Origin: Torymus aiolomorphi
Taxonomy: Eukaryota; Arthropoda; Insecta; Hymenoptera; Torymidae
Assembly (NCBI GenBank): GCA_036365515.1
Contig: CM070874.1
Span: forward strand, 219,650,942 to 219,714,941
Length of the DNA stretch: 64,000 nucleotides
Reading direction: 5' to 3'
Part shown: piece by piece, positions 37,342 to 56,329 of the stretch
How the letters are laid out: each line of letters begins with the position of its first letter
How positions within the stretch are numbered: the first letter of the stretch is position 1
Notes under the pieces: generated by a model
Told to the model about the DNA's origin: nothing
The model's input: only the letters and a program-made list of their open reading frames with translations
The model's database searches: none
Translations under genes and position numbers: made by a program

Positions 37342-37380
37342 ATTGTCTATTAATGGTCTTGAAGAAACTCCTTGTAGAGT

Positions 37381-37782
37381 TTGAGTTCGGATAAAGGCAA
37401 CGTAACGGTGTGTCTTAATAAATCAGATTATAACAATAAAATGTTAGAACTTCTTTCTGATGATAACACGTATAAAAAAGTAAAAAAGAATCCCTTAGAT
37501 TCATTGATAAAAGAAACTTCCAAAATTTTGAAATCTCTGAATAACTATGAATTTCTTCACAAACAATTTCACAACAATCAATTAACTTTGACGGACACAG
37601 TTCTAGCCAAATGCTACGGATTACCAAAAATACACAAGGAAGGCGCACCCTTACGACCTATTATCTCTTTAGTTAACAGTCCCACCTATTTTTTAGCGAA
37701 TATTATTTATAAACAATTAAAGAATTGTATAACACTTCCACGTTCTCATATTGACAATAGCTTGGAATTAAAGACAAAACTT
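37381..37782 (+). pseudogene. Second Penelope-like element, RT N-terminal part, interrupted by the Polinton
   Basis: The frame encodes an RT fingers region with DKGNVTVCLNKSDY, AKCYGLPKIHKEG, LRPIISLVNSPTY and HIDNSLELKTKL, typical of Penelope-like elements. It runs into the Polinton end at 37783. The frame resumes exactly at 56812 with KNVQLNSDYVLLLLDVKSLF, so the two halves were contiguous before insertion. The element's own 5' part is missing: it begins abruptly at about 37378. Confidence 0.85.
37777..37782 (+). repeat. Polinton target site duplication (left)
   Basis: AAACTT, repeated at 56812-56817. The uninterrupted reading frame of the host Penelope-like element needs only one copy, which confirms that it is a duplication. 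Confidence 0.9.
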
Positions 37783-39130
37783 AGTAGTAGGGGCAGCGCG
37801 GCTACCGCGCCAGAGCGGCTCCCGCGCCACTTACCCACCGAGCACTACTTACCGTCCGTCGGTAAGATAGGGTGCAAAGTCACCATGCGAGAGGCCCGGT
37901 AGAGGGCGCATTGAACATTTACTCCATCGATAAAATGCGTACGTATGTCATGTTGCAGGAGGCATGGGGCCCTCATGTGATGTTATGTTGTAAGTGAATA
38001 TAGAATATTTTTATAATATTCATATACGCGGCTACCGCGCCAGAGCGGCTCCCGCGCCACTTACCCACCGAGCACTACTTACCGTCCGTCGGTAAGGTAG
38101 GGTGCAAAGTCACCATGCGAGAGGCCCGGTAGAGGGCGCATTGAACATTTACTCCATCGATAAAATGCATACGTATGTCATGTTGCAGGGGGCATGGGGC
38201 CCTCATATGATGTTCAGAGAGTATGCTATATCCATTGTGAATATTTATGATGATATCAACACATTTTTATCCCATTCACTTACTACTTAAATCTTTTATA
38301 ATCTTGTTGTTGGGGAAAGGATTGAGTGTTAGTAGAATATTTCGCGGCTACCGCGCCAGAGCGGCTCCCGCGCCACTTACCCACCGAGCACTACTTACCG
38401 TCCGTCGGTAAGGTAGGGTGCAAAGTCACCATGCGAGAGGCCCGGTAGAGGGCGCATTGAACATTTACTCCATCGATAAAATGCGTACGTATGTCATGTT
38501 TCAGGGGGCATGGGGCCCTCATATGATGTTCAGAGGGTATGCTATATCCATTGTGAATATTTATGATGATATCAACACATTTTTATCCCATTCACTTACT
38601 ACTTAAATCTTTTATAATCTTGTTGTTGGGGAAAGGATTGAGTGTTAGTAGAATATTTCGCGGCTACCGCGCCAGAGCGGCTCCCGCGCCACTTACCCAC
38701 CGAGCACTACTTACCGTCCGTCGGTAAGGTAGGGTGCAAAGTCACCATGCGAGAGGCCCGGTAGAGGGCGCATTGAACATTTACTCAATCGATAAAATGC
38801 GTACGTATGTCATGTTGCAGGGGGCATGGGGCCCTCATGTGATGTTATGTTGTAAGTGAATATAGAATATTTTTATAATATTCATATAGTGTTAGCGCGG
38901 CTACCGCGCCAGAGCGGCTCCCGCGCCACTTACCCACCGAGCACTAATTACCGTCCGTCGGTAAGGTAGGGTGCAAAGTCACCATGCGAGAGGCCCGGTT
39001 GTAGAGGGCGCATTGAACATTTACTCCATCGATAAAATGCGTACGTATGTCATGTTGCAGGGGGCATGGGGCCCTCATGTGATGTTATGTTGTAAGTGAA
39101 TATAGAATATTTTTATAATATTCATATAGT
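37783..39130 (+). repeat. GC-rich subterminal repeats of the Polinton, left (five copies)
   Basis: Copies begin at about 37797, 38028, 38344, 38660 and 38896 with CGCGGCTACCGCGCCAGAGC. They run through a self-complementary TTACCGTCCGTCGGTAA box and on to CATGTTGCAGGGGGCATGGG. Two 3' variants exist: one ends 'atgttgtaagtgaatatag' (unit about 235 bp) and one ends 'tatccattgtgaatatttat' (about 316 bp). The 62-codon ORF MQSHHARGPVEGALNIYSID... occurs in every long-variant copy and is a property of the repeat. Confidence 0.85.
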
Positions 39131-40690
39131 GTTATTTGTTAATTATAAGTAGTCTTATATTTTATAAGTATATTTTATCTTAATATATTCAATCAGTATA
39201 TTTTATATTGTATAAGATTCTACAAAGATATTTTATAAGTTCATAGAAATTTTAAAAAGTTAATGATGAGCAATTCAATGAAATTTATATTAACAATATC
39301 AAATGACTATTTTTAAATTCAAAAGAAACTTTAAAATATTTAAACAAGTTAGTTTTTAAGGAAATTTATAAATTCGTGATACGTGCTATGTAAAAAATTA
39401 AAGTCCCTACGAGGAGACTGAAAAGTTAAAGTACAACAGCTGAGAATATCTCAGAAAAAATATGAATTCATTAAAGAAAGTGATTTGAAAATAACTTATA
39501 AATTCATGATACGTGCTGTGAAAAAAAATTAAAGTCCCTACAGAGAGACTGAAAAGTTAAAGTTCAATAGCTGAGAATATCTTAGAAAAAGGAATAACTT
39601 ATAAATTCGTGATACGTGCTATGTAAAAAATTAAAGTCCCTACGAAGAGACTGAAAAGTTAAAGTTCAACAGCTGAGAATATCTTAGAAAAAATATGAAT
39701 TCATTATACGTAAAAAGTTAAAGTATCTGAAAGTTTAAAATAGTAAGTATAAGATGCCTAAGGGACTTATAATATGAATAGTGTGAAAAAGTTTAAGTAT
39801 AAGACGTGAAAATAACTTAGAATTAATTCGACAAATGAATTTACCTTTTATAACTGTAAGAAAAGTGTTGTATTAAGATTCAAGACTTTAAAACTTTTAA
39901 ATTATAAGTCCTGAAAGAAGAAATTATTAAAGACCTGTAAGAATGCTATATTAAAAGTATTAGAGCTGAAATAAGAAAAAGAAACGAGTGGCTAGGACCC
40001 AGCTCGCCTAACCTTTATAGTAAGGAAATGTTTGTAAATACTTTTTATCAGCCCAAACTTAAAAGTTTCTCTGTCATGCGCAGTTCGTCACCTACCAATC
40101 TTTCCTCACTCATCTATGAATCTTTTACGTTACCACGCATGTGCATACGATCATCTATAGATCTTTCTTCTTTAATCTAAAATGAATAACTATACCGTGC
40201 AGGTGCACTGCCATCTATCAATCTTTAAACTGTCGCGCTTGCGCACCTATATACCGACAGTGGATAAAAGGCTGCGCGTCAGTCCCATGAGGCTTAGTCT
40301 CCTTACCAAACGTAAGTATTTCATATAATTACTTTTGATTTTCAGCTTATTAATATACAATCCTTACAGCTTATTGATCTATAGTTTAACTTATAATGAT
40401 TCAGTTTTTCTCTTCATTATATTAATGTAACTTAAAGTTTTCGATTATAATAACTTCGTCTTTTCAACGTATTAACATATATAATTTTCAATTCTCTAAT
40501 ACTTTATCATTTATAGTTCTATAAAATTAAATTTTTTTTTAATGCTTTGCTATTAGTTTATAATACTTGAACATTTTTTAGATACATCTCATTATTTCAA
40601 GTTGACAAGTGCTACTGAGCTTTGAGAGTATTTTTTCGTTACCGTCTGAAAATAGCTTGAAAGATTTTCATCTAATATACCGATAGTTGT
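39131..40690 (+). repeat. Deleted extra copy of the Polinton inverted arm
   Basis: 39131-39362 matches the outer arm (41513-41745). The DNA that would carry the two arm genes is missing, and the sequence resumes with the 120-140 bp tandem repeats (39365-39720). It then continues past the point where the left arm stops (44803): 40020-40690 matches 53248-52592 of the right arm in inverted orientation. This copy therefore preserves arm DNA, including a promoter-like segment, that the main left arm has lost. Confidence 0.8.
40264..40320 (+). promoter_or_regulatory. TATA-type promoter and splice donor in the extra arm copy
   Basis: GGATAAAAGG is followed about 30 nt later by an initiator-like TTAGTC and then a strong splice donor (CCAAAC|GTAAGT). 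The same arrangement is present in the right arm (53020-52969, minus strand), where it points at the three-exon gene. Assigned from motifs only. Confidence 0.35.
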
Positions 40691-41512
40691 AAGTGAATAT
40701 AGAATATTTTTATAATATTCATATACGCGGCTACCGCGCCAGAGCGGCTCCCGCGCCACTTACCCACCGAGCACTACTTACCGTCCGTCGGTAAGGTAGG
40801 GTGCAAAGTCACCATGCCAGAGGCCCGGTAGAGGGCGCATTGAACATTTACTCCATCGATAAAATGCGTACGTATGTCATGTTGCAGGGGGCATGGGGCC
40901 CTCATGTGATGTTATGTTGTAAGTGAATATAGAATATTTTTATAATGTTCATATAGTGTTAGCGCGGCTACCGCGCCAGAGCGGCTCCCGCGCCACTTAC
41001 CCACCGAGCACTACTTACCGTCCGTCGGTAAGGTAGGGTGCAAAGTCACCATGCGAGAGGCCCGGTAGAGGGCGCATTGAACATTTACTCCATCGATAAA
41101 ATGCGTACGTATGTCATGTTGCAGGGGGCATGGGTCCCTCATATGATGTTCAGAGGGTATGCTGTATCCATTGTGAATATTTATGATGATATCAACACAT
41201 TTTTATCCCATTCACTTACTACTTAAATCTTTTATAATCTTGTTGTCGGGGAAAGGATTGAGTGTTAGTAGAATATTTCGCGGCTACCGCGCCAGAGCGG
41301 CTCCCGCGCCACTTACCCACCGAGCACTACTTACCGTCCGTCGGTAAGATAGGGTGCAAAGTCACCATGCGAGAGGCCCGGTAGAGGGCGCATTGAACAT
41401 TTACTCCATCGATAAAATGCGTACGTATGTCATGTTGCAGGGGGCATGGGGCCCTCATGTGATGTTATGTTGTAAGTGAATATAGAATATTTTTATAATA
41501 TTCATATAGTGT
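40691..41512 (+). repeat. GC-rich subterminal repeats, second block (three copies)
   Basis: Copies start at about 40727, 40972 and 41279 with the same CGCGGCTACCGCGCC opening and both 3' variants. A terminal-type block inside the element suggests an internal duplication or a recombination between two Polinton copies. Confidence 0.8.
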
Positions 41513-42060
41513 TATTTGTTAATTATAAGTAGCCTTATATTTTATAAGTATATTTTATCTTAGTATATTCAATCAGTATATTTTATATTGTATAAGATTC
41601 TACAAAGATATTTTATAAGTTCATAGAAATTTTAAAAAGTTAATGATGAGCAATTCAATGAAATTTATATTAACAATATCAAATGACTATTTTTAAATTC
41701 AAAAGAAACTTTAAAATATTTAAACAAGTTAGTTTTTAAGGAAAATTTTCTATTATAAGAATAAATATTTCATAGAGGACATTGGGATGTGGAAACTTTA
41801 AGGGAAAATAAAAAAGATATGTAAGATTATTTCATATTTATTTAAAAAAGCTTTTTCATATTTATTTAAAAAAGCTTAAAAGTAATACATAGTAGAATAC
41901 ATCTTAATCTACGAGTATAAAAAGTTTCAAATTAATCTTTCTACTATAAAAATATATTTAGAAACTAGTGAACATCTTAATTAAAAAGTATTACAATTTA
42001 GCAAATAACTTTGAAAATTTAAAATTAAAGTTAAAGAGAAAATTATCTAAAAACTTATAA
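41513..42060 (+). other. Outer left arm without genes
   Basis: AT-rich arm DNA matching 55755-56310 in inverted orientation. A 'tttcatatttatttaaaaaagct' phrase is tandemly doubled at about 41830-41880. I see no gene. Confidence 0.6.
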
Positions 42061-42351
42061 TTATATAAATTCTAGAAGGCATCCACCTAAAGATTTGACG
42101 AAGACTTCTCTATTAACTAATTCTGACTCTATGTTGAGAAGCGCCTCTGGCTTCTCCAGTAATAAAGAATTAACTTTACTTGGAAGGAAAATGTCAAAAC
42201 TACTGTCTAATTCAAGAACAATTTTTAAGCCGTATTTAGTGGATACCTTTTTTAATGAGGTTATCTTATACATTTTATTTAGCTCCAAGTCCCGTAGTCG
42301 TTTTGTGGGCAGGTATGATGGACTTCTCGCTGCTTCATTTATGAGGTCCAT
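42061..42351 (-). CDS. Small conserved arm protein B (left copy, 96 aa)
   Basis: The frame is intact and begins MDLINEAARSPSYLP. It has the pattern of one small beta-rich domain: MYKITSLKKVSTKYGLKIVLEL, then FDIFLPSKVNSLL, then a C-terminal GGCLLEFI. The alternation KxTxxKGxKIVLEL...xxFLPxK recalls the strands of a single-stranded-DNA-binding OB fold, which would suit a replication accessory protein. That is inference from pattern, not a recognised family. The right-arm copy (55464-55754) differs at only a couple of residues (Met/Gln after NK; Glu/Lys in LLLxKPE). Both frames staying open suggests recent arm homogenisation or selection. Confidence 0.6.
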   Translation of the reverse strand: MDLINEAARSPSYLPTKRLRDLELNKMYKITSLKKVSTKYGLKIVLELDSSFDIFLPSKVNSLLLEKPEALLNIESELVNREVFVKSLGGCLLEFI

Positions 42352-42412
42352 GACTGAAAAAAGAAATGATAAATTATTATTTATATTTTTTTTTATAGAA
42401 TTACTTACTTGT

Positions 42413-42943
42413 TTATTCTGACGTATCAGAACTTTCAGGGGTTGAATATTGCTCTCTCAAGTCTTCCACCCAGCGGTATAAAGCGCAAACTATTTCAACT
42501 GAACAATTCTGTTTCCACCCGGGACAATGATTAATGCAGGCTAGCGGTCGTATAAATCCAGGAGTTCTTATAGATGGACAACCCAAATCCTCCAAGTTTC
42601 TTATATTATCGAAATAGGGTTGCAGCCAGTGTTTTTTGTGTTCACCTTTGACCCAAATTGTTAATAACGACCCCTGCGCTTTTTCTTTCAATTTGTCGAA
42701 AGCCGTTGACAGGTATGAATACGGCACCTCTCCGTGTTCCCAATGAATTCCGTGCAGATTGGATTGTAAATATCTATTTAAAATTTTTACATTCTAGTCT
42801 AAATCACTCCAATCACAGGGTGGTTGAAATGTCGCAACGTACGGCACCGGATTTAACGCATTAGGATCTATATAAGCAATTTCTTTAAATATAAAATTGC
42901 CGTTGTTATCTTTAAAACCTTGTGTATCTACAATTAGTTCCAT
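42413..42943 (-). pseudogene. Arm protein A, left copy, broken by an early TAG
   Basis: Counterpart of the intact 54873-55403 gene. The start ATG (42941-42943) and the first 49 codons are preserved, but codon 50 is TAG (42794-42796) where the right copy has CAG, a single C-to-T change on the coding strand. The rest of the frame is intact to the TAA at 42413-42415. The product would be about a quarter of full length unless an internal start is used. The right arm still provides a full copy. Confidence 0.8.
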
Positions 42944-43019
42944 GATAAGTTATATACTGGAAATGTAGATAACATTATTTGAATATTATTCAAGAAAAAA
43001 AGTAGAGTTAATATAATAG

Positions 43020-44480
43020 TGTTAAAAGTTAGAGTGAAAGATGTGATAATAACTTATTAATTCATAATACATGCAATGAAAAAATTAAAGTCCCTACGGA
43101 GAGATTGAAAAGTTAAAGTACAATAGCTGAGAAAATCTTAGAAAAAAAAAATATGAACTCATTATATGTGAAAAAGTTAAAGTAAGAGATGTGAAAATAA
43201 ATTATAAATTCATGATACGTGCTATGTAAAAAATTAAAGTCCCTAAGAAGAGACTGTAAAGTTAAAGTTCAACAGCTGAGAATATCTTAGAAAAAAATAT
43301 GAATTCATTAAAGTAAGAAATTTTAAAGTAACTTATAAATTCATGATACGTGCTGTGAAAAAATTAAAGTCCCTACAAAGAGACTGAAAAGTTAAAGTTT
43401 AATAGCTGAGAATGTCTTAGAAAAAATTAATAATTTATAAATTCACGATACGTGCTATGTAAAAAATTAAAGTTCCTAAGAAGAGACTGAAAAGTTAAAG
43501 TTCAACAGCTGAGAATATCTTAGAAAAAAAATATGAATTCATTAAAGTAAGAAATTTTAAAGTAACTTATAAATTCATGATACGTGTTATGAAAAAAATT
43601 AAAGTCCCTACAAAGAGACTGAAAAGTTAAAGTTTAATAGCTGAGAATGTCTTAGAAAAATTAATAATTTATAAATTCACGATACGTGCTATGTAAAAAA
43701 TTAAAGTCCCCAAGAAGTGACTGAAAAGTTAAAGTTCAACAGCTGAGAATATCTTAGAAAAAAATATGAATTCATTAAAGTAAGAAATTTTAAAGTAACT
43801 TACAAATTCATGATACGTGTTATGAAAAAAATTAAAGTCACTACAGAGAGACTGAAAAGTTAAAGTTCAATAGCTGAGAATGTCTTAGAAAAATGAATAA
43901 CTTATAAATTCGTGATACGTGCTATGTAAAAAATTAAAGTCCCTACGAGGAGACTGAAAAGTTAAAGTACAACAGCTGAGAATATCTCAGAAAAAATATG
44001 AATTCATTAAAGAAAGTGATTTGAAAATAACTTATAAATTCATGATACGTGCTGTGAAAAAAAATTAAAGTCCCTACAGAGAGACTGAAAAGTTAAAGTT
44101 CAATAGCTGAGAATGTCTTAGAAAAATGAATAACTTATAAATTCGTGATACGTGCTATGTAAAAAATTAAAGTCCCTACGAGGAGACTGAAAAGTTAAAG
44201 TACAACAGCTGAGAATATCTCAGAAAAAATATGAATTCATTAGAGAAAGTGATTTGAAAATAACTTATAAATTCATGATACGTGCTGTGAAAAAAAATTA
44301 AAGTCCCTACAGAGAGACTGAAAAGTTAAAGTTCAATAGCTGACAATATCTTAGAAAAAGGAATAACTTATAAATTCGTGATACGTGCTATGTAAAAAAT
44401 TAAAGTCCCTACGAAGAGACTGAAAAGTTAAAGTTCAACAGCTGAGAATATCTTAGAAAAAATATGAATTCATTATACGT
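43020..44480 (+). repeat. Arm tandem repeats (about 120-140 bp units), left
   Basis: About ten imperfect units share ATTCATGATACGTGCTATG, AAATTAAAGTCCCTAC, AGACTGAAAAGTTAAAGT and AGCTGAGAATATCTTAG. Mirrored at about 53575-54760 in the right arm and partly at 39365-39720. No hammerhead core was found in them. They make up much of the arm length. Confidence 0.85.
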
Positions 44481-44800
44481 AAAAAGTTAAAGTATCTGAA
44501 AGTTTAAAATAGTAAGTATAAGATGCCTAAGGGACTTATAATATGAATAGTGTGAAAAAGTTTAAGTATGAGACGTGAAAATAACTTAGAATTAATTCGA
44601 CAAATGAATTTACCTTTTATAACTGTAAGAAAAGTGTTGTATTAAGATTCAAGACTTTAAAACTTTTAAATTATAAGTCCTGAAAGAAGAAATTATTAAA
44701 GACCTGTAAGAATGCTATATTAAAAGTATTAGAGCTGAAATAAGAAAAAGAAACGAGTGGCTAGGACCCAGCTCGCCTATCCTTTATAGTAAGGAAATGT

Positions 44801-45034
44801 TTGAGAAGATTATGTAATGTCGCAGCTCCTAACGATAAGAATGATGCTGTAAATTTGATTACTCTCGAACGTATTGTACAAGCTGAAGTACAAAAAGTGT
44901 ATCAGTCAACAGCACACTTAAGAACTGAGCTTAAAAATTTAGATGATATTGTTGACATCCATAGAGATGTAATAGATGATAAATTGAGAAAATTGGAATT
45001 TGAAATAGCAACCATACGTAAAAGTAACTCATAA
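44801..45034 (+). CDS. Truncated ORF ahead of the integrase (77 aa, no ATG)
   Basis: The frame enters from the arm boundary (unique sequence starts at 44804) and has no ATG in phase, so its 5' end was probably lost when the arm and the internal region were joined. It opens RRLCNVAAPNDKNDAVN, a phrase resembling the xNVxxPxxxxDAVN connector seen in trimeric fibre-type proteins, followed by a heptad-like helix. It stops with TAA at 45032-45034, seven bases before the integrase ATG, and is in the same phase as the integrase. It could be the end of a lost structural gene. That is a weak inference. Confidence 0.35.
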   Translation: MRRLCNVAAPNDKNDAVNLITLERIVQAEVQKVYQSTAHLRTELKNLDDIVDIHRDVIDDKLRKLEFEIATIRKSNS

Positions 45035-45040
45035 CCTTTG

Positions 45041-45975
45041 ATGATGGAAAAAAAAAAATATATAGTAGAAGAATTACACAAACCTGCTCGTCGTAATTAC
45101 ACACGTCGAAAATATGATATACGAGATCTAGATGAAACATGGCAAGCTGATCTTGTGGAAATGATACCGTATGCACATAAAAACAAAGGTTACAAGTATC
45201 TTCTTACTGTCATTGATGTGTTTTCTAAGTTTGCTTGGACGGTACCAGTGAAAAGTAAAACTGGAAAAAATGTATCTGAAGCTATGAAATTTATATTAAA
45301 AAAAGGACGAATACCTAAAAATTTACAAACTAATCGAGGAAAAGAATTTTATAATAAAGAATTTGAAAGTTTAATGCTAAAATATAATATAAATCTATAT
45401 TCATCCTATAGCAAACTCAAAGCCTCAATTTGTGAACGTTTTAATCGTACATTAAAAAACAAAATGTGGAAAAACTTTAGTTTACAAGGCAGTTATAAAT
45501 GGATAGATATTTTGCAAGACCTAACTTTACAGTATAATAATACTAAGCACCGAACGATTGGTATGAAGCCCGCAGATGTTAATTCTACAACAGTTAATAA
45601 AGTTTATAATCGTTTATGCATTCATCAGAAAACCTCTAAACGTCCTTGTAGGCGTGCAAAATTTAAACTTGGTGATAAAGTTCGAATAAGTAAAAATAAA
45701 ACTGTTTTCGAGAAAGGATATACACCAAACTGGTCTACAGAAATTTTTACAATAAATAAAGTATTACCTACATCACCATTTACATATCATTTGAAAGATT
45801 ATCAAGATAAACCAATCGCTGGCGGATTCTATGAAGAAGAACTTATGAAGACTAAATATCCTGATATTTACTTAGTAGAAAAAATTATAAAAAACATGGC
45901 GATAAAATTTATGTAAAATGGTTAGGTTTTGATAAGTCTCATAATAGTTGGATAAAAAAAGTGATTTATGAATAA
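45041..45975 (+). pseudogene. Polinton integrase (retroviral-type, rve fold), damaged
   Basis: In Polintons this enzyme inserts the excised or copied element into chromosomes. The start is the ATG pair at 45041. The N-terminus (EELHKPARRNYTRRK) is typical of Polinton integrases from insects. The core has the first catalytic Asp in WQADLVEM (residue 38 counting from 45038), the IDVFSKFAW strand, and the Glu in KASICERFNRTL (133). The expected second Asp is Asn in LQTNRGKEF (codon AAT, 45332-45334), a change expected to abolish DDE chemistry. The first frame ends at 45916. A chromodomain-like tail (VKWLGFDKSHNSWI) continues in another frame to TAA at 45973-45975, after an apparent one-base loss in the A-run at 45889-45894. 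Poly(A) signals overlap the stop (45971-45980). Confidence 0.85.
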
Positions 45976-46007
45976 ATAAAATTGTAAATAAGATGAACTA
46001 ATTGTTT

Positions 46008-46221
46008 TTATTTAATACCTATTTCCTTACATTTTTTTACAAGAATTGGATGCAAAATTTCATTAACTTTATCAATTCTTCTCCTAAAACGTTCTCTGTC
46101 ACGAGCAATTTGTTCCCATTCTCCACACCGAGCCTTATGATATGCAAACCTCCACGCATGCATTACATGAACAGTTAGCTTTTCATCAAAATGTACATTC
46201 TTTTTAACACGCATTGGACAC
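46008..46221 (-). CDS. PPP1R15 (GADD34-like) domain protein or exon in a Polinton
   Basis: The 68-residue frame from ATG 46212-46214 holds a PP1-docking motif of the RVxF class (KNVHF, residues 5-9). It continues with the PPP1R15 core: an HVMHAWRFAY stretch, then GEWEQIARDRERFRRRI (residues 31-47). In cells PPP1R15 proteins target protein phosphatase 1 to eIF2-alpha, reversing the translation block of the integrated stress response. Several large DNA viruses carry short proteins of this kind against host shutoff, and this one is of similar minimal length. Upstream, TTTATTATTTTAG at 46222 is a good splice acceptor, so the sequence may be a last exon and not a stand-alone gene. A poly(A) signal (46007-46012) overlaps the stop. 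Its 3' end faces the integrase gene 32 bp away. The family call is from motifs. Function in this element is inference. Confidence 0.8.
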
Positions 46222-46309
46222 CTAAAATAATAAATTTCTATATTACATATGTAGAATATTTACTATAAATTAATATATAAATTACTATTATACAAAAAAA
46301 TATACTCAC
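46222..46309 (-). other. Candidate 88-bp intron between polymerase and PPP1R15-like exon
   Basis: On the minus strand the donor GTGAGT begins at 46309, overlapping the polymerase stop codon (TGA 46306-46308). The acceptor TTTTAG ends at 46222. The intron is AT-rich and of usual insect length. Splicing leaves phase matched on both sides (two bases plus one), removing the stop and continuing into the PPP1R15-like frame. Unspliced RNA would end the polymerase normally. Confidence 0.6.
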
Positions 46310-49300
46310 TTATTATTTATTTTATAATGACCCCATGCTAAAGTATCTATATTATTGTCTTGAACATATCTTTTATCATCATATGGACTTAAGGCAATCT
46401 TTAACTGCTTTATAGTTTCTACATTATGGAGTCGGGATCTTATGGAATACTGTTGTCGTTTTTTAATAGATAAATTTTGCAAACAATCTACAAAATCATC
46501 AAACTTTATAGTTTTTTTAACAACTGAAACCTTAATACCTTTTATTTTTTTCATATGATCTTGACCATAAAAGCGAGTACTGTACATTTTACTTCTTAAG
46601 CCAACGAATTCTGTAAGAATCTGACCATTACACTCATCTTTCATAAGACCAACAATTTTTTTATTTGCATGAGGCATATTAAAGATGTTTTCACTGGGAT
46701 AGTCTGAAGTATCAAACTTTGAGAGATTCTTTTCCATATCAGCATAAAAATCATCACATTCAACAGCATAAATCAAGCTGTCTGTGTCTGTATAAAGAAG
46801 CTTACAATTTTCTTTATACATTTTTTTCATATAACTATAATGAAAATCATAAATCAGAGTTTTAGAAATGTCTAAAACTGAAAGTCCAACGTAAATTGGT
46901 TTATCTAACAAAACTTCAACTTTTTTAAGCTGGATAGCTACTAAATTTTCATCAAAAATACTAATACTATGAAAAAGGGGACTTGATATTTGTGCTTCTA
47001 CGCCATACCTTCCAGCCCATTTAGTTGATAGCTTGACATCAACACGTTTTCTTACATTCTCCATAGTTTTACCATATACAGCATTATTCATCAATTTGAA
47101 AAAGTTTTTTTCAAAATCAGTTCTTGCTAACGCCCTCATATTACTATTTAAATTGATGTAAGACTTAAGCCATGGAGATTGTTTAAATTTCAATACTTTA
47201 TGAATTTTAACAAGCTGAAGTCCATTTTTGACAGCTTGTTTAAGTGATCGATAGTGTATAACATAACTTTTTTTATACGAAAGTGTAGCCAAAAGTTTTT
47301 CCTGTTTTGATCCCGGTAGTTTTGCTTGCTCAGGACAAAAAGGTAAGTCGTTATGAATGTCATGTATTTCTGAAGGATATTCTAAATCTACTTCTAAAAT
47401 GTACCCGTAAGGTGCATCATCATCTATGAAAAAATCTAAATTTTCACAGTCGTCTATCCACTCAAAGGAATCATAAGGGAGACATTGAGTCATTGCCCAA
47501 CCATATAAATTATTAGCATCTAAATATATTAGATATGTATTTTCTTTATTTTTATCATAATTTTCAGTCATATATTTATGATTTGCAGCTGCGTAGCGAT
47601 GAGAGCACTGACTTAATCCACCTCTTATACCTCTTTCTATGAATAAAATCATATCTATATCAGTTAATAATTTTAATTGTATGCCAGTATACTTTAGCAT
47701 TGCATCCCATGCAAATCCTGGAGTAGTATAATAATGAGCTGGATCTAAACCATATACGTTTATACTTTGATCACGAAAATTTTCAAAAACATCAGCTAAT
47801 AATAAAACATCTGTCTTCATATAAAGATCTGAATATTCTCCAAGGGTATGAATACTAAAGGTATTCCATACTTTTTGTGCATGTTCATAATCTTCATCAG
47901 ATATGGTTGAACTATTTAGCACACTGAAAAATTTTGTTTTTTCAGGTAACTCAGTTTCATCCAACTTTTCCCACGAATCCAGGTACTCGTAAGGCAGAAC
48001 GCCTTTCTTCGTTAAAAGACTGATTTTTTCTTTTTCTAAAGATGAAAACTCCTTTGAAACAATTTTATATTCACTTAAATATGAAGCTAATTTTTCTAAA
48101 GAAGATGGCATACATCTAAATGAATCTACAAAGCGAAATTTAATATCACTTTTCTCAACATGTTTTGTAAAAGAAATATACTTCTCCTTAGTCAATGGAA
48201 GTAAATCAACATCACCTTTCATATAATTCGATATATCATTAATTATAAAGTGAGCATCATAACCACTTAAGTTATGAAATATCACAGGAATCGTTCTTGA
48301 ATCTTGATAATTCAAATTACAGTTAGCATGAGCAGGACCGCGATATTTTCCTGAGAGATGACAATGATCTCTTACCTTATCACTGTTTTCTAATAATTTG
48401 TTACAAATGTGACAAATTTTTGAATTGAAATAATTAATCATTTCTATCGGTGTTAAAATTGGCATAGATCGTGGGTTTGTATATAAATTAGTAATACGGT
48501 CATGTATTACCTTCAATTCACTAGCAAACCACATAGCTGGTTTAACCCCACGATAAAATCTATATTCAGATAAAGAGTCATCAAAACTGCACTTCAAATA
48601 ATATCCTATACTAAACATTTCATGTTTTTGAAACGATAAAGTATTAGCCAAACCTTCATCTTCCTGGTTTTCTAGTACAGGCTTTAACAGACATTCACAA
48701 TCTGCATATATTGTGAATGGTAATCTTTCTTTATAATTAAAATTTTTAAAATAGATGATATCTTTACCTTTTATAGGAAGTTTCACCTTGCAATCATTAA
48801 TATTCTTACATATTCTTTCATGCTCTTTTAAATTATTTTCATTAAAGAAAAATTTAAACATCTATCACATATATATCGCTTCTTTTTTCTATGTGATAAA
48901 CTTCCTCCTACTAGACGTGATAAATTTTTTATATATATGTAATGTGATTTCAGCTGTCCCTTAATTGTTTTTTCTAATAAAAGAAGATTTACATGATTTT
49001 CTTTTTTTTCATGTGTCAAATAAAAGGGAATCACATTTTTCTCATGCAATCCGAAGACATTAACCGATATTAAAGGGTTTTGTTTTTCAAACTTGAAAAT
49101 TTTTTTTATCGTAACAGGGAATTCTATACCTGTCATATTTAAATTATTTTCATACTGAAGATAATTGCTAACCCTGTTAGGATGATTTTTACGGTTTACT
49201 GGATACAAAGCAGATAATATTGCCCATTTAAAGCATTGATTATCTTTGTTTTGAATATTAATGCAGGCATTTTTTTTATCTAAAAATGGTGGTAAAGGTA

Positions 49301-50036
49301 AATATGAATTACCACTGCGCAATGGATTGAACTTGTTCATATTAATTTGAATATTAATAATAGAATTTAAAGTCCATCCAGAATCTTTTTCTTGAAATTC
49401 TTCTACCTCAGCCAAAAGTTTATTTAAAACATGATTATCAAACCATTCACTTAAAGATGTACCTAAAACCACTTCAGCGGTTGGCGTATTGAAATGTTTC
49501 GTTTCAATACTTTCCTATGAATCTTCATTTACATCAGAAGAAAGTTTCTTGAATGAACAAGATAGTACAGTGTTAATTTTCATGGCACATCGAATATCTT
49601 TCAAAATTTTCTTCACTTGTTGGCAGAACAATACTGAGGCGTCCTTTAAAAAGGTTGATATATCTATATGTACAAGATTTGCAATTATACTAGTTCTCAC
49701 CCTTTTATTAAAAGCACTTTCAATATCAATCCAACGAACTCGATGCTCGATTTCATCCGTTTTTAAATCTGGTACTATTCCATAACCAGTTTTTCCTATA
49801 GCATCAAGCTTTGCTTTGATACTCTCAATCCTTGCTATGGCGTATAAAATAGATTGTTTTTGAGCTGTTGTCAGCGTTCTTTTTCTCAATAATTCCCGAA
49901 GACTATCTAATGATAAAACACATTGTTCTACCCATTGTTCAATAACTTTGGAATCCATAGATTTATATATTAAAATATTTTCCACCTCTTCAAAAATTTT
50001 CACATGTTCCTGACAAAGATCTTTAAATTCATCCAT
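46306..50036 (-). pseudogene. Polinton-type DNA polymerase B, nearly complete, with one in-frame stop and one frameshift
   Basis: This is the replicative polymerase of the element, of the protein-primed B type. The ATG is at 50034-50036. The N-terminal segment (to 49515) has the IESAFNKRVRT region. It ends in a TAG (49515-49517), after which the same phase stays open to 48828 (EEFQEKDSGW, NQCFKWAILSALYP, then the CDRC half of a zinc finger). A T-run near 48850 then shifts phase, and the frame 48861-46306 carries the rest. Numbered from 48861, that part has Exo I (YADCE, 52-56), an endonuclease-VII-like zinc motif (DHCHLSGKYRGPAH, 165-178), Exo II (FHNLSGYDAHF, 195-205), Exo III (YMKTDVLLLADVF, 347-359), Pol A (YLDANNLYGWAM, 446-457), Pol B (NNAVYGKTM, 592-600) and Pol C (YTDTDSL, 690-696). 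All catalytic motifs look intact. The two lesions make this copy non-functional unless read through or unless they are sequence errors. Confidence 0.88.
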
Positions 50037-50721
50037 TTTTTCAAATTAAAAAAAGACTTTTTTTTCGTAAGTGTATTCTGAAAATTAAAAAATTATGTTA
50101 TCATTTTAAATAATTATTGATAAAAAAAAATGGTGAAGAGAAATTAAAATAATCAATGATTTTGTATAATATTAGATCAGCATTTGATAATATAGAAACA
50201 GTTTAGTTGTATTAGGCAGTTATAATTAGATAGTATTTTATAAGATTTAACTTACATTATAATAAAATTAAAGATTAAATGATTGGTATAAAGCCTTATG
50301 CAATACTTTTAAAATCTTAGCAGACGACGTGGCAGTGGGCCACAAGTGAGGGACGCGTGAGTGAGAGGTACATAGTGAGAATGTAGAGTGGGAGGGGGAG
50401 GGGGATACTATCTACTCGAAGAGTTCATATGTGCCCCCGTAGGGTATAAGAAATGATGCGTGGTAATTATTTTATTAAATATATTTTATTAAATATATTG
50501 AGAGAAGAGGCGTAATTGAATGCCTGAAACGTTGACAAGGTAGATCATTGAAATCATACAAAATTAATTAATAGTTTTAATACAATAATGATTATACCAA
50601 ATTTAGTGTAAATATTATAAAAATTATTTATATACTATAAATAGTGAAATACTATAAAAAAATTATACATAAAATACTATATAAACTTAATTAAACTTAA
50701 CTAACTCGCGAATTTCATTTT
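50037..50721. other. Intergenic region upstream of the polymerase
   Basis: 686 bp between the polymerase start and the stop of the next minus-strand gene. A GC-richer island at about 50320-50460 holds a G-run (GGGAGGGGGAGGGGG, near 50391-50405) and 'gacgacgtggcagtgggcca'. These may be promoter elements for the polymerase. The rest is AT-rich and I see no ORF. Confidence 0.4.
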
Positions 50722-51897
50722 TTAATGTTCGCTTATCCGTTTTTCTCTTTTTTTAAGGAGAATTTCATTTTTTAATGTTTGCTTATCCGTTTTTCTCTTT
50801 TTTTTAGGGAGAATTTCATTTTTTAATGTTTGCCTATCCGTTTTAGGTTCTTCTATATTTAATATTTTTTTCATTTCTGCACGAACTTGATAGTCTATGG
50901 TAGGATTATGCGCAGGATTCGGAATTGTTATTAGCTTCGCGGGCGGTGGAGAATTCAATAAATTTAAATCGAATGATTGTGGACTGTATGGCTCTAACGG
51001 TGGCGTTGACCAGCTACCAAATTCAAACGTAAACGATTCTGGCGTATAGCTCTCCCTTAGCGGAGAAGGTGGTAAAGGTATTTCTTCTATGATATTGAAT
51101 GACTCCGAGGGTTGATCTATTGGTGAAATTACTTCGGGTAGAGGTCTAACTATTGGAAGAAGTTTTTTAAATATATTGGATGTTTTTTCTTGCTCCTGGT
51201 TTTGGACTAGAAAAACATTTTCACTACTTTCCACATGGTTTTGTGATGAATTGAGCTGAAAATAAAAAATATATATTTATAATAAAATATATAGCATATG
51301 TATCATAAAAAAATATTATATTGCTTACCACTTCATTTCTGCGTATACTATACACTACAGGTGATTGCGGTGATTCTTCCTACAAATAAGCATACTTTTT
51401 TAATATAATTTAATTAGAAAAATTATGCATTACTTTATAAAAAGATAAAATATTACATTATAATAAAACACTGTTATGGTATCTATCAAATCATAAAATT
51501 TTTTCAAATACGATAAAATCTATGACTATAATTTTTAGGTAGTTTTGAAAAAATAAATAAAAAAATTATAAATTTACGTTAAAATGATAGAGAAAATTGC
51601 AATATTTTCATAAAAGCTACAATTTCGCAATTCGCTAAAATAATAATAATTTATTTTGAAACTAATAATAGTTTTTAAACTTACCTGATAGTCCTCACAC
51701 TCATTCAAAACTTCATAACATAGCGTTGGTAGATTTCTTACAATTCTCGGGTCCTTTCTATGATCTTCTGCAAATGGACATATTTCAGGAAGATCTATAG
51801 TTTTTTCCTTTAACTTTTCCCACTCACATTTATGTTGTACACTATTTACAATGATTCTTCTGATTTCCGTCACATAGATCTCTGTACTTTTATACAT
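50722..51897 (-). CDS. Three-exon gene of unknown function in the Polinton
   Basis: Three in-phase exons with canonical sites: exon 1 51897-51685 (ATG at 51895-51897, donor CAG|GTAAGT), exon 2 51379-51329 (acceptor TTGTAG, donor GTG|GTAAGC), exon 3 51255-50722 (acceptor TTTTCAG). The predicted product is about 265 residues. Exon 1 encodes a Cys-containing segment (HKCEWEKLKEKTIDLPEICP) that I do not recognise. The middle is acidic and rich in Pro and Ser (PLPPSPLRESYTPES), probably disordered. The C-terminus has a basic tract (KKKRK) and nearly repeated TDKQTLKNEIL units, which come from a tandem DNA repeat of about 50 bp at 50705-50845. The basic tail suggests nuclear or nucleic-acid binding, by inference only. 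The gene points the same way as the polymerase and lies downstream of the right-arm promoter. Confidence 0.6.
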
Positions 51898-52591
51898 TTT
51901 TAACTTTAAAAATTTTCCAAATCGGACGAAGTTGCTTGTGTGAACACTTCCTAAAGACTGAATCTTGTATATTATACGTAGCGAGAAAAGCAACGCTTTC
52001 AATATATAATGCCCTTTATAGAAAAAATTTGGATTTTGGAAAGATTTTCAATGGAGCACTTAGGGTCCTTTGTTTTATGAACGCTTCGAGAGTGACGCGC
52101 GGGTGGACGATATCGTTCACACATGTGCTGGCTCGCTAAACTGCCTTTCCGAAATTTTCTTGAATTTTACTTCTAAACTAATTCTTTATCGGTTGCTTCG
52201 CGAACTAACAATATTAATGATACTTTATTTAATCAATTGTTATTTGAATGAAGCCCTTTCATTTAGTCGAAAAGTATTACATATTTTTGGCTCATTTTTA
52301 TTTTACAGAATAGTTTTACTTTATTGTTATGTATATAATAATACATAATAGAATGTACTGTTTCATTTATAATTATCAAAGTTAATTATAGTTTGCTAAG
52401 TTCTAGTATTATACATTTGAATAAAAAATTTTAAATAAAATAAACACTTAATTGAAAAGGAATATTTGTGAAATATTGAAAAAATTTAAGTGGAAAAAGA
52501 ATAATGAACTTGAGAAAAAAAAAGGTTTAAATTAATTTATATTAACTTACCAATTCGTTTTGAACTTAACTAGTGAAAAGATAGACTTCTG
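51898..52591 (-). other. Leader region of the three-exon gene with a possible 5' exon
   Basis: AT-rich and without a convincing ORF; a 92-codon plus-strand frame at 52070-52348 is hydrophobic low-complexity and was rejected. On the minus strand an acceptor (TTGCTGCAG, ending 52589) and a donor (AATTG|GTAAGT at 52551/52550) bracket a 38-bp candidate non-coding exon (52588-52551). Confidence 0.35.
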
Positions 52592-53248
52592 CAGCAACTA
52601 TCGGTATATTAGATGAAAATCTTTCAAGCTATTTTCAGACGGTAACGAAAAAATACTCTCAAAGCTCAGTAGCACTTGTCAACTTGAAATAATGAGATGT
52701 ATCTACAAAATGTTCAAGTATTATAAACTAATAGCAAAGCATTAAAAAAATTTAATTTTATAGAACTATAAATGATAAAGTATTAGAGAATTGAAAATTA
52801 TATATGTTAATACGTTGAAAAGACGAAGTTATTATAATCGAAAACTTTAAGTTACATTAATATAATGAAGAGAAAAACTGAATCATTATAAGTTAAACTA
52901 TAGATCAATAAGCTGTAAGGATTGTATATTAATAAGCTGAAAATCAAAAGTAATTATATGAAATACTTACGTTTGGTAAGGAGACTAAGCCTCATGGGAC
53001 TGACGCGCAGCCTTTTATCCACTGTCGGTATATAGGTGCGCATGCGCGACAGTTTAAAGATTGATAGATGGCAGTGCACCTGCACGGTATAGTTATTCAT
53101 TTTAGATTAAAGAAGAAAGATCTATAGATGATCGTATGCACATGCGTGGTAACGTAAAAGATTCATAGATGAGTGAGGAAAGATTGGTAGGTGACGAACT
53201 GCGCATGACCGAGAAACTTTTAAGTTTGGGCTGATAAAAAGTATTTAC
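52592..53248 (-). repeat. Inner right-arm segment shared with the extra left copy only
   Basis: Matches 40020-40690 inverted, but has no counterpart beside the main left arm, which ends at 44803. It contains the promoter-like segment described separately. One 3-4 base difference is visible ('tgcgcatgaccgagaaactt' here against 'ctgtcatgcgcag' there). Confidence 0.8.
52969..53020 (-). promoter_or_regulatory. TATA-type promoter in the right arm with first-exon donor
   Basis: On the minus strand GGATAAAAGG (53020-53011) precedes an initiator-like TTAGTC by about 30 nt and a CCAAAC|GTAAGT donor at 52971/52970. The direction is into the gene region, toward the three-exon gene. A short capped non-coding exon spliced to 52588-52551 and onward would be one reading. 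It rests on motifs only. Confidence 0.35.
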
Positions 53249-53574
53249 AAACATTTCCTTACTATAAAGGTTAGGCGAGCTGGGTCCTAGCCACTCGTTT
53301 CTTTTTCTTATTTCAGCTCTAATACTTTTAATATAGCATTCTTACAGGTCTTTAATAATTTCTTCTTTCAGGACTTAAAATTTAAAAGTTTTAAAGTCTT
53401 GAATCTTAATACAACACTTTTCTTACAGTTATAAAAGGTAAATTCATTTATCGAATTAATTCTAAGTTATTTTCACGTCTCATACTTAAACTTTTTCACA
53501 CTATTCATATTATAAGTCCCTTAGGCATCTTATACTTACTATTTTAAACTTTCAGATACTTTAACTTTTTACGT

Positions 53575-54770
53575 ATAATGAATTCATATTTTTTCTAAGA
53601 TATTCTCAGCTGTTGAACTTTAACTTTTCAGTCTCTTCGTAGGGACTTTAATTTTTTACATAGCACGTATCACGAATTTATAAGTTATTCCTTTTTCTAA
53701 GATATTCTCAGCTATTGAACTTTAACTTTTCAGTCTCTCTGTAGGGACTTTAATTTTTTTTCACAGCACGTATCATGAATTTATAAGTTATTTTCAAATC
53801 ACTTTCTTTAATGAATTCATATTTTTTCTGAGATATTCTCAGCTGTTGTACTTTAACTTTTCAGTCTCCTCGTAGAGACTTTAATTTTTTACATAGCACG
53901 TATCACGAATTTATAAGTTATTCATTTTTCTAAGACATTCTCAGCTATTGAACTTTAACTTTTCAGTCTCTCTGTAGGGACTTTAATTTTTTTCATAACA
54001 CGTATCATGAATTTATAAGTTACTTTAAAATTTCTTACTTTAATGAATTCATATTTTTTTCTAAGATATTCTCAGCTGTTGAACTTTAACTTTTCAGTCT
54101 CTTCTTAGGGACTTTAATTTTTTACATAGCACGTATCGTGAATTTATAAATTATTAATTTTTCTAAGACATTCTCAGCTATTAAACTTTAACTTTTCAGT
54201 CTCTTTGTAGGGACTTTAATTTTTTCATAACACGTATCATGAATTTATAAGTTACTTTAAAATTTCTTACTTTAATGAATTCATATTTTTTCTAAGATAT
54301 TCTCAGCTGTTGAACTTTAACTTTTCAGTCTCTTCTTAGGAACTTTAATTTTTTACATAGCACGTATCGTGAATTTATAAATTATTAATTTTTTCTAAGA
54401 CATTCTCAGCTATTAAACTTTAACTTTTCAGTCTCTTTGTAGGGACTTTAATTTTTTCACAGCACGTATCATGAATTTATAAGTTACTTTAAAATTTCTT
54501 ACTTTAATGAATTCATATTTTTTTCTAAGATATTCTCAGCTGTTGAACTTTAACTTTTCAGTCTCTTCTTAGGGACTTTAATTTTTTACATAGCACGTAA
54601 CATGAATTTATAATTTATTTTCACATCTCTTACTTTAACTTTTTCACATATAATGAGTTCATATTTTTTTTTTCTAAGATTTTCTCAGCTATTGTACTTT
54701 AACTTTTCAATCTCTCCGTAGGGACTTTAATTTTTTACATTGCATGTATTATAAATTAATAAGTTATTAT
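53575..54770 (-). repeat. Arm tandem repeats, right
   Basis: Mirror of 43020-44480 with a similar unit order but fewer units. Shared boxes are CTTTAACTTTTCAGTCTCT and ACTTTAATTTTTTACATAGC. Differences between arms are mainly single bases and unit copy number. Confidence 0.85.
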
Positions 54771-54872
54771 CACATCTTTCACTCTAACTTTTAACACTAT
54801 TATATTAACTCTACTTTTTTTCTTGAATAATATTCAAATAATGTTATCTACATTTCCAGTGTATAACTTATC

Positions 54873-55403
54873 ATGGAAATAATTGTAGATACACAAGGTT
54901 TTAAAGATAACAACGGCAATTTTATATTTAAAGAAATTGCTTATATAGATCCTAATGCGTTAAATCCGGTGCCGTACGTTGCGACATTTCAACCACCCTG
55001 TGATTGGAGTGATTTAGACCAGAATGTAAAAATTTTAAATAGATATTTACAATCCAATCTGCACGGAATTCATTGGGAACACGGAGAGGTGCCGTATTCA
55101 TACCTGTCAACGGCTTTCGACAAATTGAAAGAAAAAGCGCAGGGGTCGTTATTAACAATTTGGGTCAAAGGTGAACACAAAAAACACTGGCTGCAACCCT
55201 ATTTCGATAATATAAGAAACTTGGAGGATTTGGGTTGTCCATCTATAAGAACTCCTGGATTTATACGACCGCTAGCCTGCATTAATCATTGTCCCGGGTG
55301 GAAACAGAATTGTTCAGTTGAAATAGTTTGCGCTTTATACCGCTGGGTGGAAGACTTGAGAGAGCAATATTCAACCCCTGAAAGTTCTGATACGTCAGAA
55401 TAA
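54873..55403 (+). CDS. Arm protein A (right copy, intact, 176 aa)
   Basis: The intact frame starts at ATG 54873, behind a possible acceptor (CATTTCCAG at 54860). The product opens MEIIVDTQGFKDNNGNFIFK and continues with NLHGIHWEHGEVPY, LLTIWVKGEHKKHWLQPY, IRNLEDLGCPS and a Cys/His-rich tail (CINHCPGWKQNCSVE). Proteins with this VDxQGF...GIxW...VKGxxKxxWL...NLEDLGCPS layout recur in insect genomes, as I recall, without a known function. The acidic/aromatic spacing resembles an RNase H-like DEDD exonuclease with a substituted first motif (DxQ for DxE). That is speculative. The Cys/His tail could bind zinc. It is followed by protein B, with a 54-bp candidate intron between (55408-55461). Confidence 0.7.
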   Translation: MEIIVDTQGFKDNNGNFIFKEIAYIDPNALNPVPYVATFQPPCDWSDLDQNVKILNRYLQSNLHGIHWEHGEVPYSYLSTAFDKLKEKAQGSLLTIWVKGEHKKHWLQPYFDNIRNLEDLGCPSIRTPGFIRPLACINHCPGWKQNCSVEIVCALYRWVEDLREQYSTPESSDTSE

Positions 55404-55407
55404 ATAA

Positions 55408-55461
55408 GTAAGTAATTCTATAAAAAAAAATATAAATAATAATTTATCATTTCTTTTTCAG
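55408..55461 (+). other. Candidate 54-bp intron between arm genes A and B
   Basis: GTAAGT begins five bases after the TAA of gene A, and TTTCTTTTTCAG ends three bases before the ATG of gene B. The spliced RNA would be dicistronic with 6-7 bases between stop and start, or the acceptor could serve an upstream leader exon for gene B. The same sites exist in the left arm. Confidence 0.5.
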
Positions 55462-55463
55462 TC

Positions 55464-55754
55464 ATGGACCTCATAAATGAAGCAGCGAGAAGTCCATCAT
55501 ACCTGCCCACAAAACGACTACGGGACTTGGAGCTAAATAAACAGTATAAGATAACCTCATTAAAAAAGGTATCCACTAAATACGGCTTAAAAATTGTTCT
55601 TGAATTAGACAGTAGTTTTGACATTTTCCTTCCAAGTAAAGTTAATTCTTTATTACTGAAGAAGCCAGAGGCGCTTCTCAACATAGAGTCAGAATTAGTT
55701 AATAGAGAAGTCTTCGTCAAATCTTTAGGTGGATGCCTTCTAGAATTTATATAA
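55464..55754 (+). CDS. Small conserved arm protein B (right copy, 96 aa)
   Basis: Intact counterpart of 42061-42351, differing at about two residues (NKQYK and LLLKKPE here). The ATG lies three bases after the candidate acceptor. A single compact beta-rich domain is likely. An OB-fold-like single-stranded-DNA-binding role is a guess from the strand pattern and the company of a DNA polymerase. Two copies per element, one in each arm, would double its dose. Confidence 0.6.
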   Translation: MDLINEAARSPSYLPTKRLRDLELNKQYKITSLKKVSTKYGLKIVLELDSSFDIFLPSKVNSLLLKKPEALLNIESELVNREVFVKSLGGCLLEFI

Positions 55755-56329
55755 TTATAAGTTTTTAGATAACTTTCTCTTTAACTTTAATTTTAAATTT
55801 TCAAAGTTATTTGCTAAATTGTAATACTTTTTAATTAAGATGTTCACTAGTTTCTAAATATATTTTTATAGTAGAAAGATTAATTTGAAACTTTTTATAC
55901 TCGTAGATTAAGATGTATTCTACTATGTATTACTTTTAAGCTTTTTTAAATAAACATGAAAAAGCTTTTTTAAATAAATATGAAATAATCTTACATATCT
56001 TTTTTATTTTCCCTTAAAGTTTCCACATCCCAATGTCCTCTATGAAATATTTATTCTTATAATAGAAAATTTTCCTTAAAAACTAACTTGTTTAAATATT
56101 TTAAAGTTTCTTTTGAATTTAAAAATAGTCATTTGATATTGTTAATATAAATTTCATTGAATTGCTCATCATTAACTTTTTAAAATTTCTATGAACTTAT
56201 AAAATATCTTTGTAGAATCTTATACAATATAAAATATACTGATTGAATATACTAAGATAAAATATACTTATAAAATATAAGACTACTTATAATTAACAAA
56301 TAACACTATATGAATATTATAAAAATATT
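55755..56329 (-). other. Outer right arm without genes
   Basis: Mirror of 41513-42060. AT-rich, with a doubled 'aagcttttttaaataaa' phrase at 55938-55985. No gene seen. Confidence 0.6.

What the first reader, a model, noticed from the sequence alone, without database searches (positions are those of the whole stretch)
46008..46221. A Polinton-type element carrying a PPP1R15/GADD34-like domain
Seen: the motif KNVHF (PP1 docking, RVxF class) and GEWEQIARDRERFRRRI in a 68-residue frame between the polymerase and integrase genes of a bounded Polinton. Known: this pair of motifs defines PPP1R15 regulators that bring PP1 to eIF2-alpha, and unrelated large DNA viruses of vertebrates carry similarly short versions to counter translational shutoff. 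Inferred: an insect Polinton or adintovirus-like lineage has captured the host domain for the same purpose. I do not know of a described Polinton example.
Basis: partly seen in the sequence, partly recalled or inferred. Interest (0 to 1): 0.92.

Follow-up and report, generated by a model that had tools for sequence, protein, structure and literature searches.

The report
Wasp Polinton carrying a PPP1R15 exon
A virus-like jumping element in an insect, probably a wasp, carries a short copy of a host switch that restarts protein synthesis, placed so that it looks spliced onto the end of the element's own DNA polymerase.

Summary
Confirmed. The 68-residue frame 46008-46214(-) matches the PPP1R15 core (phmmer vs PDB: PPP1R15A 5.9e-11, DP71L 1e-5); Pfam PP1c_bdg is sub-threshold (18.7 of 26.1 bits). 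Nine of ten published PP1/actin-contact residues equal human PPP1R15A. The carrier is a true Polinton: 19,029 bp, 37783-56811, ends AGTAGTAGGGGC, TSD AAACTT, inside a reverse-transcriptase ORF that reads through at the joined empty site. So it is not a lone retrocopy. This copy is decayed: PolB and integrase are broken, and no capsid gene was recognised. Recruiting PP1 to eIF2-alpha is inferred, not shown. Host origin, prevalence and dN/dS are untested, because the genome search did not complete. An insect-virus PPP1R15 is in print; I found no printed Polinton case.

The parts
37783..56811 (.). Whole Polinton insertion, 19,029 bp, ends AGTAGTAGGGGC...GCCCCTACTACT
   Evidence: 30-bp perfect terminal inverted match; taking out the element plus one TSD gives an open RT frame
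37777..37782 (.). Target-site duplication AAACTT, left
56812..56817 (.). Target-site duplication AAACTT, right
41279..44803 (.). Left long inverted-repeat arm (pairs with 53248-56539, 97-99%)
53248..56539 (.). Right long inverted-repeat arm
45041..45916 (+). Integrase (rve); the frame changes before a tail in another frame that ends about 45975 (chromodomain-like by eye, recalled)
   Evidence: Pfam rve E=1.1e-12; tail frames
46008..46221 (-). PPP1R15-core exon; ORF with ATG 46214 to 46008, 68 aa
46222..46309 (-). Predicted 88-nt intron, GTGAGT...TTTTAG, 87.5% A+T, phase kept
46310..48861 (-). PolB, main open part up to the predicted donor (the unspliced frame runs on to a stop ending at 46306; 851 aa)
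   Evidence: 7,981 scored proteins at E<=1e-10, 120 listed; 76% to Nasonia P0075, 67-68% to the Megastigmus adintovirus PolB. Pfam itself gives only a sub-threshold Endonuclease_7 match and no polymerase model at E<=0.1
48828..49514 (-). PolB, middle part in another frame (frame change near 48.85 kb)
49515..50045 (-). PolB, N-terminal part, set off by an in-frame stop (assigned by place and frame; not searched on its own)
50722..51897 (-). Possible three-exon gene of unknown family
   Evidence: splice-like borders seen; no Pfam match above cut-off and no PHROG match
54873..55403 (+). 176-aa ORF inside right arm (broken partner 42413-42793 in left arm)
   Evidence: no Pfam match
55464..55754 (+). 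96-aa ORF inside right arm (partner 42061-42351 in left arm)
   Evidence: no Pfam match

Best explanation
A lineage of hymenopteran Polintons carries the roughly 65-residue functional core of PPP1R15, encoded as a separate terminal exon directly behind PolB and joined to it by splicing, so that some or all PolB is made with a PPP1R15 tail. Shown: the domain, its place, the Polinton borders, an in-phase splice layout, and the same fused arrangement in a Nasonia gene model whose PolB is the closest relative. Inferred: the tail docks PP1 through K-N-V-H-F, V-H and the Arg-site arginine, binds G-actin with the helix after W33, and so brings PP1 to phosphorylated eIF2-alpha; while the element is expressed this would keep translation running against the insect eIF2-alpha kinases (PERK and GCN2, recalled). 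Also inferred: one ancestral capture of a host exon. The copy in this window is itself broken and probably inactive.
For: Homology: PPP1R15A 5.9e-11, DP71L 1e-5; profile 4.4e-14; Nasonia tail alone 5.5e-10; 5 of 5 members of alignment A1 hit PF10488 at E<=0.1, best 7.4e-6. Contact residues: V7, F9, V15, H16, R29, W33, F43, R46, I47 of the window equal human PPP1R15A V556, F558, V564, H565, R578, W582, F592, R595, I596 (ungapped alignment; sites from passages of PMC8500838, PMC10743859, PMC4394352; R578 and I596 carried over from the mouse numbers in that last paper); K63 stands for R612 (numbering extended past the aligned part). Nasonia keeps 8 of 10. Fusion: P0075 ends ...WGHYNI-LQNGKKKCVRF... 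and then the whole domain; the window donor GTGAGT is one of 2 on the minus strand of the 19-kb element. Common descent: window and P0075 are sisters, support 0.998, 121 sequences, 598 columns, domain left out. The mammalian PPP1R15 core is encoded by a separate exon (PMC4394352, passage), which suits exon capture.
Against: Pfam score below cut-off; one of the 5 A1 members also hits NIPSNAP at 0.0019, as good as the window's own PF10488 E-value of 0.0015. The Nasonia fusion is a database gene model; I saw no RNA evidence. Only 1 of 120 listed PolB relatives has the tail; 79 of the 120 reach the last PolB motif and 76 of these stop within 25 residues of it, so a spliced exon further on would not show. 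A search with the Nasonia tail gave 1 hit, itself, of 119 candidates (sizes 366-1165 aa only). IMG/VR scans found none, and 2 distant PolB loci lack it. No host sequence was available, so the direction of capture is unproven. PolB should work in the nucleus, eIF2-alpha in the cytoplasm (recalled). Constraint depends on an assumed neutral distance: 39 of 63 identical residues in an open frame arise in 30%, 4.7% and 0.02% of 5,000 neutral runs at 0.15, 0.25 and 0.4 substitutions per site.
Confidence: 0.66

Rival explanations
1. The domain is real but is made as a small stand-alone protein from its own ATG at 46214, like DP71L; the fusion in Nasonia is a gene-model artefact.
For: The ORF has its own ATG and stop; two near-identical stand-alone predictions exist, P0001 (97%) and P0002 (90% over 75% of the query); unspliced PolB has a stop codon directly at the donor.
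Against: Donor and acceptor fit and keep the phase in the window, and the fused order is predicted in a second species; the predictions P0001 and P0002 may simply not model introns (inference).
Confidence: 0.25
2. The tail is functional but serves replication or regulation rather than translation: it brings PP1 (and actin) to the polymerase complex to dephosphorylate a replication factor.
For: It is attached to PolB in the Nasonia model, and the PP1-docking half is conserved.
Against: The C-terminal half (W33, F43, R46, I47), needed for actin-dependent eIF2-alpha specificity in PPP1R15A (PMC8500838, PMC4394352, passages), is also kept in both species.
Confidence: 0.15
3. A recent host exon or retrocopy dropped into this one copy, without function for the element.
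For: This copy is decayed and the domain is intact. The intactness says little: three lesions over about 4.7 kb of PolB and integrase predict only about 0.14 lesion in 0.21 kb (my arithmetic).
Against: The same domain sits in the same position in the sister PolB of Nasonia, 39 of 63 residues identical.
Confidence: 0.05
4. Independent captures in the two lineages.
For: The next PolB relatives P0004 and P0005 show no tail in their records (P0006 is cut short of the end).
Against: Same position, strand and fusion point, and the two bearers are each other's closest PolB relatives.
Confidence: 0.07

Closest known systems
Viral PPP1R15 proteins: HSV ICP34.5, ASFV DP71L, insect-virus coGV-gp036
   Same: Short, core-only PPP1R15 domain with RVxF docking and the following helix; DP71L matches at 1e-5; coGV-gp036 is aligned as an insect virus PPP1R15 in PMC4394352 (passage; that GV means granulovirus is my reading, the word occurring in that paper)
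   Different: Those sit in larger DNA viruses and I know of none tied to a polymerase (recalled); here the carrier is a Polinton and the domain looks spliced to PolB. ICP34.5 and coGV-gp036 were not compared by sequence here
Cellular PPP1R15A/B and insect PPP1R15
   Same: Same core, same contact residues as human 15A
   Different: No long N-terminal part; located in a mobile element. Insect host PPP1R15 was not available for comparison
Hymenopteran Polintons/Mavericks and the Megastigmus wasp adintovirus
   Same: PolB and integrase, AGT ends, 6-bp TSD; PolB 67-68% identical to the Megastigmus one. Maverick/Polinton abundance in Nasonia and braconids is in print (PMC6035795, passages)
   Different: PPP1R15 tail; arms of about 3.3-3.5 kb carrying ORFs; no ATPase, protease or capsid gene recognised here. 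The gene list of the Megastigmus element was not seen
PolB fusions of Polinton-like viruses (helicase-PolB in OmPLV, Tlr1)
   Same: Extra domain on PolB (PMC12721341, passages; that paper also mentions TP and vOTU on other polymerase fusions)
   Different: Those named partners are replication enzymes, terminal protein or vOTU; here a host-signalling regulator

Membership tests
PPP1R15 functional core | Significant similarity to the PPP1R15A/B core | tested here: met
   15A 5.9e-11 single sequence, 4.4e-14 profile; 15B 0.024 and 1.1e-4
PPP1R15 functional core | Pfam PF10488 gathering score | tested here: not met
   18.7 of 26.1 bits; Nasonia 25.0, although its database record is labelled PF10488. 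The match covers positions 170-213 of a 230-position model
PPP1R15 functional core | RVxF, PhiPhi and Arg-site PP1 contacts | tested here: met
   K-N-V-H-F, V15-H16, R29 (alignment; sites)
PPP1R15 functional core | W582, F592, R595, I596 and helix for actin/eIF2-alpha | tested here: met
   W33, F43, R46, I47 identical; predicted helix 33-65, mean pLDDT of the model 68.3, pTM 0.32. R612 is K in both species
PPP1R15 functional core | Fold match to solved structures | tested here: inconclusive
   Foldseek vs PDB: 0 matches at E<=10; short model, docking end below pLDDT 50
PPP1R15 functional core | Promotes eIF2-alpha-P dephosphorylation with PP1 | not testable with these tools
   bench assay needed
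Polinton/Maverick | Ends starting AGT and 6-bp TSD | tested here: met
   that these are Polinton hallmarks is recalled
Polinton/Maverick | Protein-primed PolB and rve integrase | tested here: met
   homology; both broken in this copy; that this PolB is protein-primed is recalled for the family
Polinton/Maverick | FtsK-like ATPase, cysteine protease, capsid proteins | tested here: inconclusive
   none recognised in the frames given to Pfam (not every frame was given), and such genes can diverge beyond Pfam
Adintovirus (virus forming particles) | Capsid gene set | tested here: inconclusive
   none recognised in the same calls; only the PolB and integrase speak for it

The most novel reading that the evidence does not exclude
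A chalcid-wasp Polinton lineage makes, by (perhaps alternative) splicing, a replicative DNA polymerase with a built-in integrated-stress-response antagonist: each such polymerase molecule carries a PP1-actin recruiting tail that keeps eIF2-alpha unphosphorylated while the element replicates.
Probability: 0.5. Interest if true: 0.82.

Novelty: new variant of a known kind. Interest (0 to 1): 0.72.

Why it matters
It would extend translation-shutoff antagonism, known from large DNA viruses, to Polintons, and imply that an insect transposon or its virus form meets eIF2-alpha kinase pressure although insects lack PKR (recalled). It would also be a rare case of a host-signalling domain spliced onto a mobile element's polymerase. 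It is directly testable in Nasonia, a laboratory insect.

Tried and rejected
The own-genome search (genome search 'own') was asked 15 times with the same request and never answered; so copy number, other copies, the host PPP1R15 and dN/dS are missing. IMG/VR scans with the domain (15 stretches; 74 stretches; 0 confirmed in both), with PolB (1 stretch, 0 confirmed) and with a PolB alignment (2 of 66 confirmed, 38-41% identical; no domain in 2 of 2; the loci are part of their contigs). The protein search with the window frame gave 3 proteins, that with the Nasonia tail only itself. PDB fold search: nothing. PHROGs: nothing useful. Literature: PPP1R15+Polinton 0 papers; Maverick+GADD34 0; GADD34+ICP34.5+'insect virus' 0; granulovirus+GADD34+eIF2 1, PMC4394352; polinton+eIF2 3, judged by title and abstract start not to be about this; adintovirus+wasp 6 and polinton/hymenoptera/maverick 20 listed of 192, judged by listing, with passages of PMC8363768 and PMC6035795 seen; PPP1R15/ICP34.5/DP71L/insect 10 listed of 11 and PPP1R15A/actin 12 listed of 13; the mixed search listed 25 of 1,368, the only row showing three terms being an estuary virus survey by its title. 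The founding adintovirus paper (10.1093/ve/veaa055) is not held, so its gene lists were not checked. Rejected: chance motif; lone recent retrocopy.

Full report
What is there. The 68-aa minus-strand frame 46008-46214 was read directly. It matches human PPP1R15A without gaps over query residues 5-60 (7nzm chain C, E=5.9e-11), other PPP1R15A chains at 1.5e-7 and 1.2e-4, DP71L of African swine fever virus at 1e-5 and PPP1R15B at 0.024. A profile from the window frame, P0001, P0002, P0003 and the Nasonia tail gives 4.4e-14 (15A), 3.3e-9 (DP71L) and 1.1e-4 (15B); the next matches, bacterial-type mismatch endonucleases, begin at 0.24. Pfam PP1c_bdg is hit at E=0.0015 and 18.7 bits, under its gathering score of 26.1, so by that one criterion membership fails; the match covers 170-213 of a 230-position model. 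All 5 members of the alignment hit this family at E<=0.1 (best 7.4e-6), but one of them also hits NIPSNAP at 0.0019.

Residue by residue. Published contacts are KVRF 555-558 and V564/H565 (PMC10743859); the Arg-site arginine (mouse 15A R571, human 15B R658) and W662/F672/I676 of 15B with their mouse counterparts (PMC4394352); and W582, F592, R595 and R612 of human 15A (PMC8500838). I saw passages of these papers, not the whole texts. With the offset of 549 given by the alignment, V556, F558, V564, H565, R578, W582, F592, R595 and I596 are identical in the window; R578 and I596 are the mouse residues moved by the same 7 places as F585/F592. R612 falls on K63, with the numbering extended past the aligned part. 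The Nasonia tail keeps 8 of the 10 (I for V564, K for R612). AlphaFold2 gives helices at 11-29 and 33-65, the second beginning at the tryptophan, at moderate confidence (mean pLDDT 68.3, residues 1-9 below 50); Foldseek found no PDB match, which says little for so short a model.

The element. The insertion is bounded by AAACTT on both sides, its ends are AGTAGTAGGGGC...GCCCCTACTACT, and the first 30 bp match perfectly as an inverted repeat. The left end has extra tandem copies of the terminal segment, so only 89 of the first 244 positions stay in ungapped register; the long arms 41279-44803 and 53248-56539 are 97-99% alike. Joining the flanks with one TSD gives an uninterrupted frame across the site; its right part is a reverse transcriptase (RVT_1 E=2.9e-12), its left part has no Pfam match above cut-off. 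That it is Penelope-type is recollection. The element holds an rve integrase (E=1.1e-12), PolB, the PPP1R15 exon, a possible three-exon gene, and two ORFs in each arm. No ATPase, protease or capsid gene was recognised in the frames given to Pfam, a weak negative. PolB is broken by an in-frame stop and a frame change, and the integrase by a frame change before its tail, so this copy is probably dead. Pfam gives the main PolB frame only a sub-threshold Endonuclease_7 match; PolB is named from its homologues, many of them labelled DNA_pol_B_2, PF03175.

Terminal exon of PolB. On the minus strand PolB ends ...WGHYKINN, and GTGAGT starts within the next codon. An 88-nt stretch, 87.5% A+T, ends in TTTATTATTTTAG, after which the PPP1R15 exon continues in phase. 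GTGAGT occurs only 2 times and GTRAGT 29 times on the minus strand of the 19,029-bp element, so a donor at this very spot is unlikely by chance. The independent test is Nasonia vitripennis LOC103317258 isoform X1 (P0075, 666 aa; name and organism as in the database record): 76% identical to the window PolB, it runs straight from WGHYNI through LQNGKKK into CVRF and ends with the whole domain, and its record carries the label PF10488. Where its introns lie was not seen. A tree of 121 PolB sequences on 598 columns, with the domain left out, makes the window and P0075 sisters (support 0.998) inside a group with P0004 (Megastigmus wasp adintovirus), P0005 and P0006 (1.0). None of the other 119 listed PolBs shows the domain. 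Of the 120, however, 79 reach the last PolB motif, and 76 of these end within 25 residues of it, so an exon further on would be invisible; absence is not shown.

Age and constraint. The two domains are 39 of 63 identical. Simulated neutral drift leaves that much identity with an open frame in 30%, 4.7%, 0.02% and 0% of 5,000 runs each at 0.15, 0.25, 0.4 and 0.6 substitutions per site. With PolB proteins 24% different, a neutral distance below 0.25 would need a weakly constrained polymerase (inference), so selection is likely but conditional. No DNA of the relatives was available for dN/dS. P0001 (97%) and P0002 (90%) are close copies from unnamed contigs; P0003 (63% over 63% of the query) may be a host or an element sequence.

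Mechanism. Published work says that the conserved core of about 70 residues suffices to attenuate the stress response in cells, and that it is encoded by a separate exon in the mammalian genes (PMC4394352, PMC8500838, passages). A captured host exon with its own acceptor could be spliced to PolB without further change. I infer that the tail recruits PP1 and actin to eIF2-alpha-P and holds translation open while the element is expressed. Open problem: PolB should act in the nucleus, eIF2-alpha in the cytoplasm; alternative splicing, or action of freshly made protein, are possible answers. A PP1 role at the replication complex is the main functional rival.

Novelty. PPP1R15 cores in viruses are known, including an insect virus (PMC4394352), and PolB fusions to replication enzymes are known in Polinton-like viruses (PMC12721341, passages). 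I found no printed Polinton with PPP1R15 (25 of 1,368 listed) and 72 of the open PMC library; the key adintovirus paper is not held. Hence: new variant of a known kind.

Noticed in passing
5049-13418 and 22871-31540: Two large satellite arrays of about 163-165 bp units in opposite orientation (90.6% over 8.1 kb).
   Followed up: no
41279-44803 and 53248-56539: The Polinton's long inverted arms carry two ORFs each (176 and 96 aa on the right; the left copy of the larger one is broken) without Pfam match, and 233-bp tandem arrays; genes inside Polinton arms are unusual to my knowledge.
   Followed up: partly
37797-41513: The left end of the Polinton has several tandem copies of its terminal 0.2-kb segment and a rearranged duplicate of arm parts (38894-40689).
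   Followed up: partly
37441-37782 and 56818-57267: The Polinton interrupts a reverse-transcriptase ORF that reads through at the joined empty site.
   Followed up: yes
46306-48861: PolB contains a stretch matching Endonuclease_7 just under its Pfam cut-off (22.7 of 23.6 bits), a label also on a number of listed relatives.
   Followed up: no
50722-51897: A possible three-exon gene of unknown family upstream of PolB, with a proline-rich last part and a short internal tandem repeat.
   Followed up: no
34434-37342, 59369-60498, 62259-62805: Several inverted repeats with arms of about 0.2-0.7 kb.
   Followed up: no
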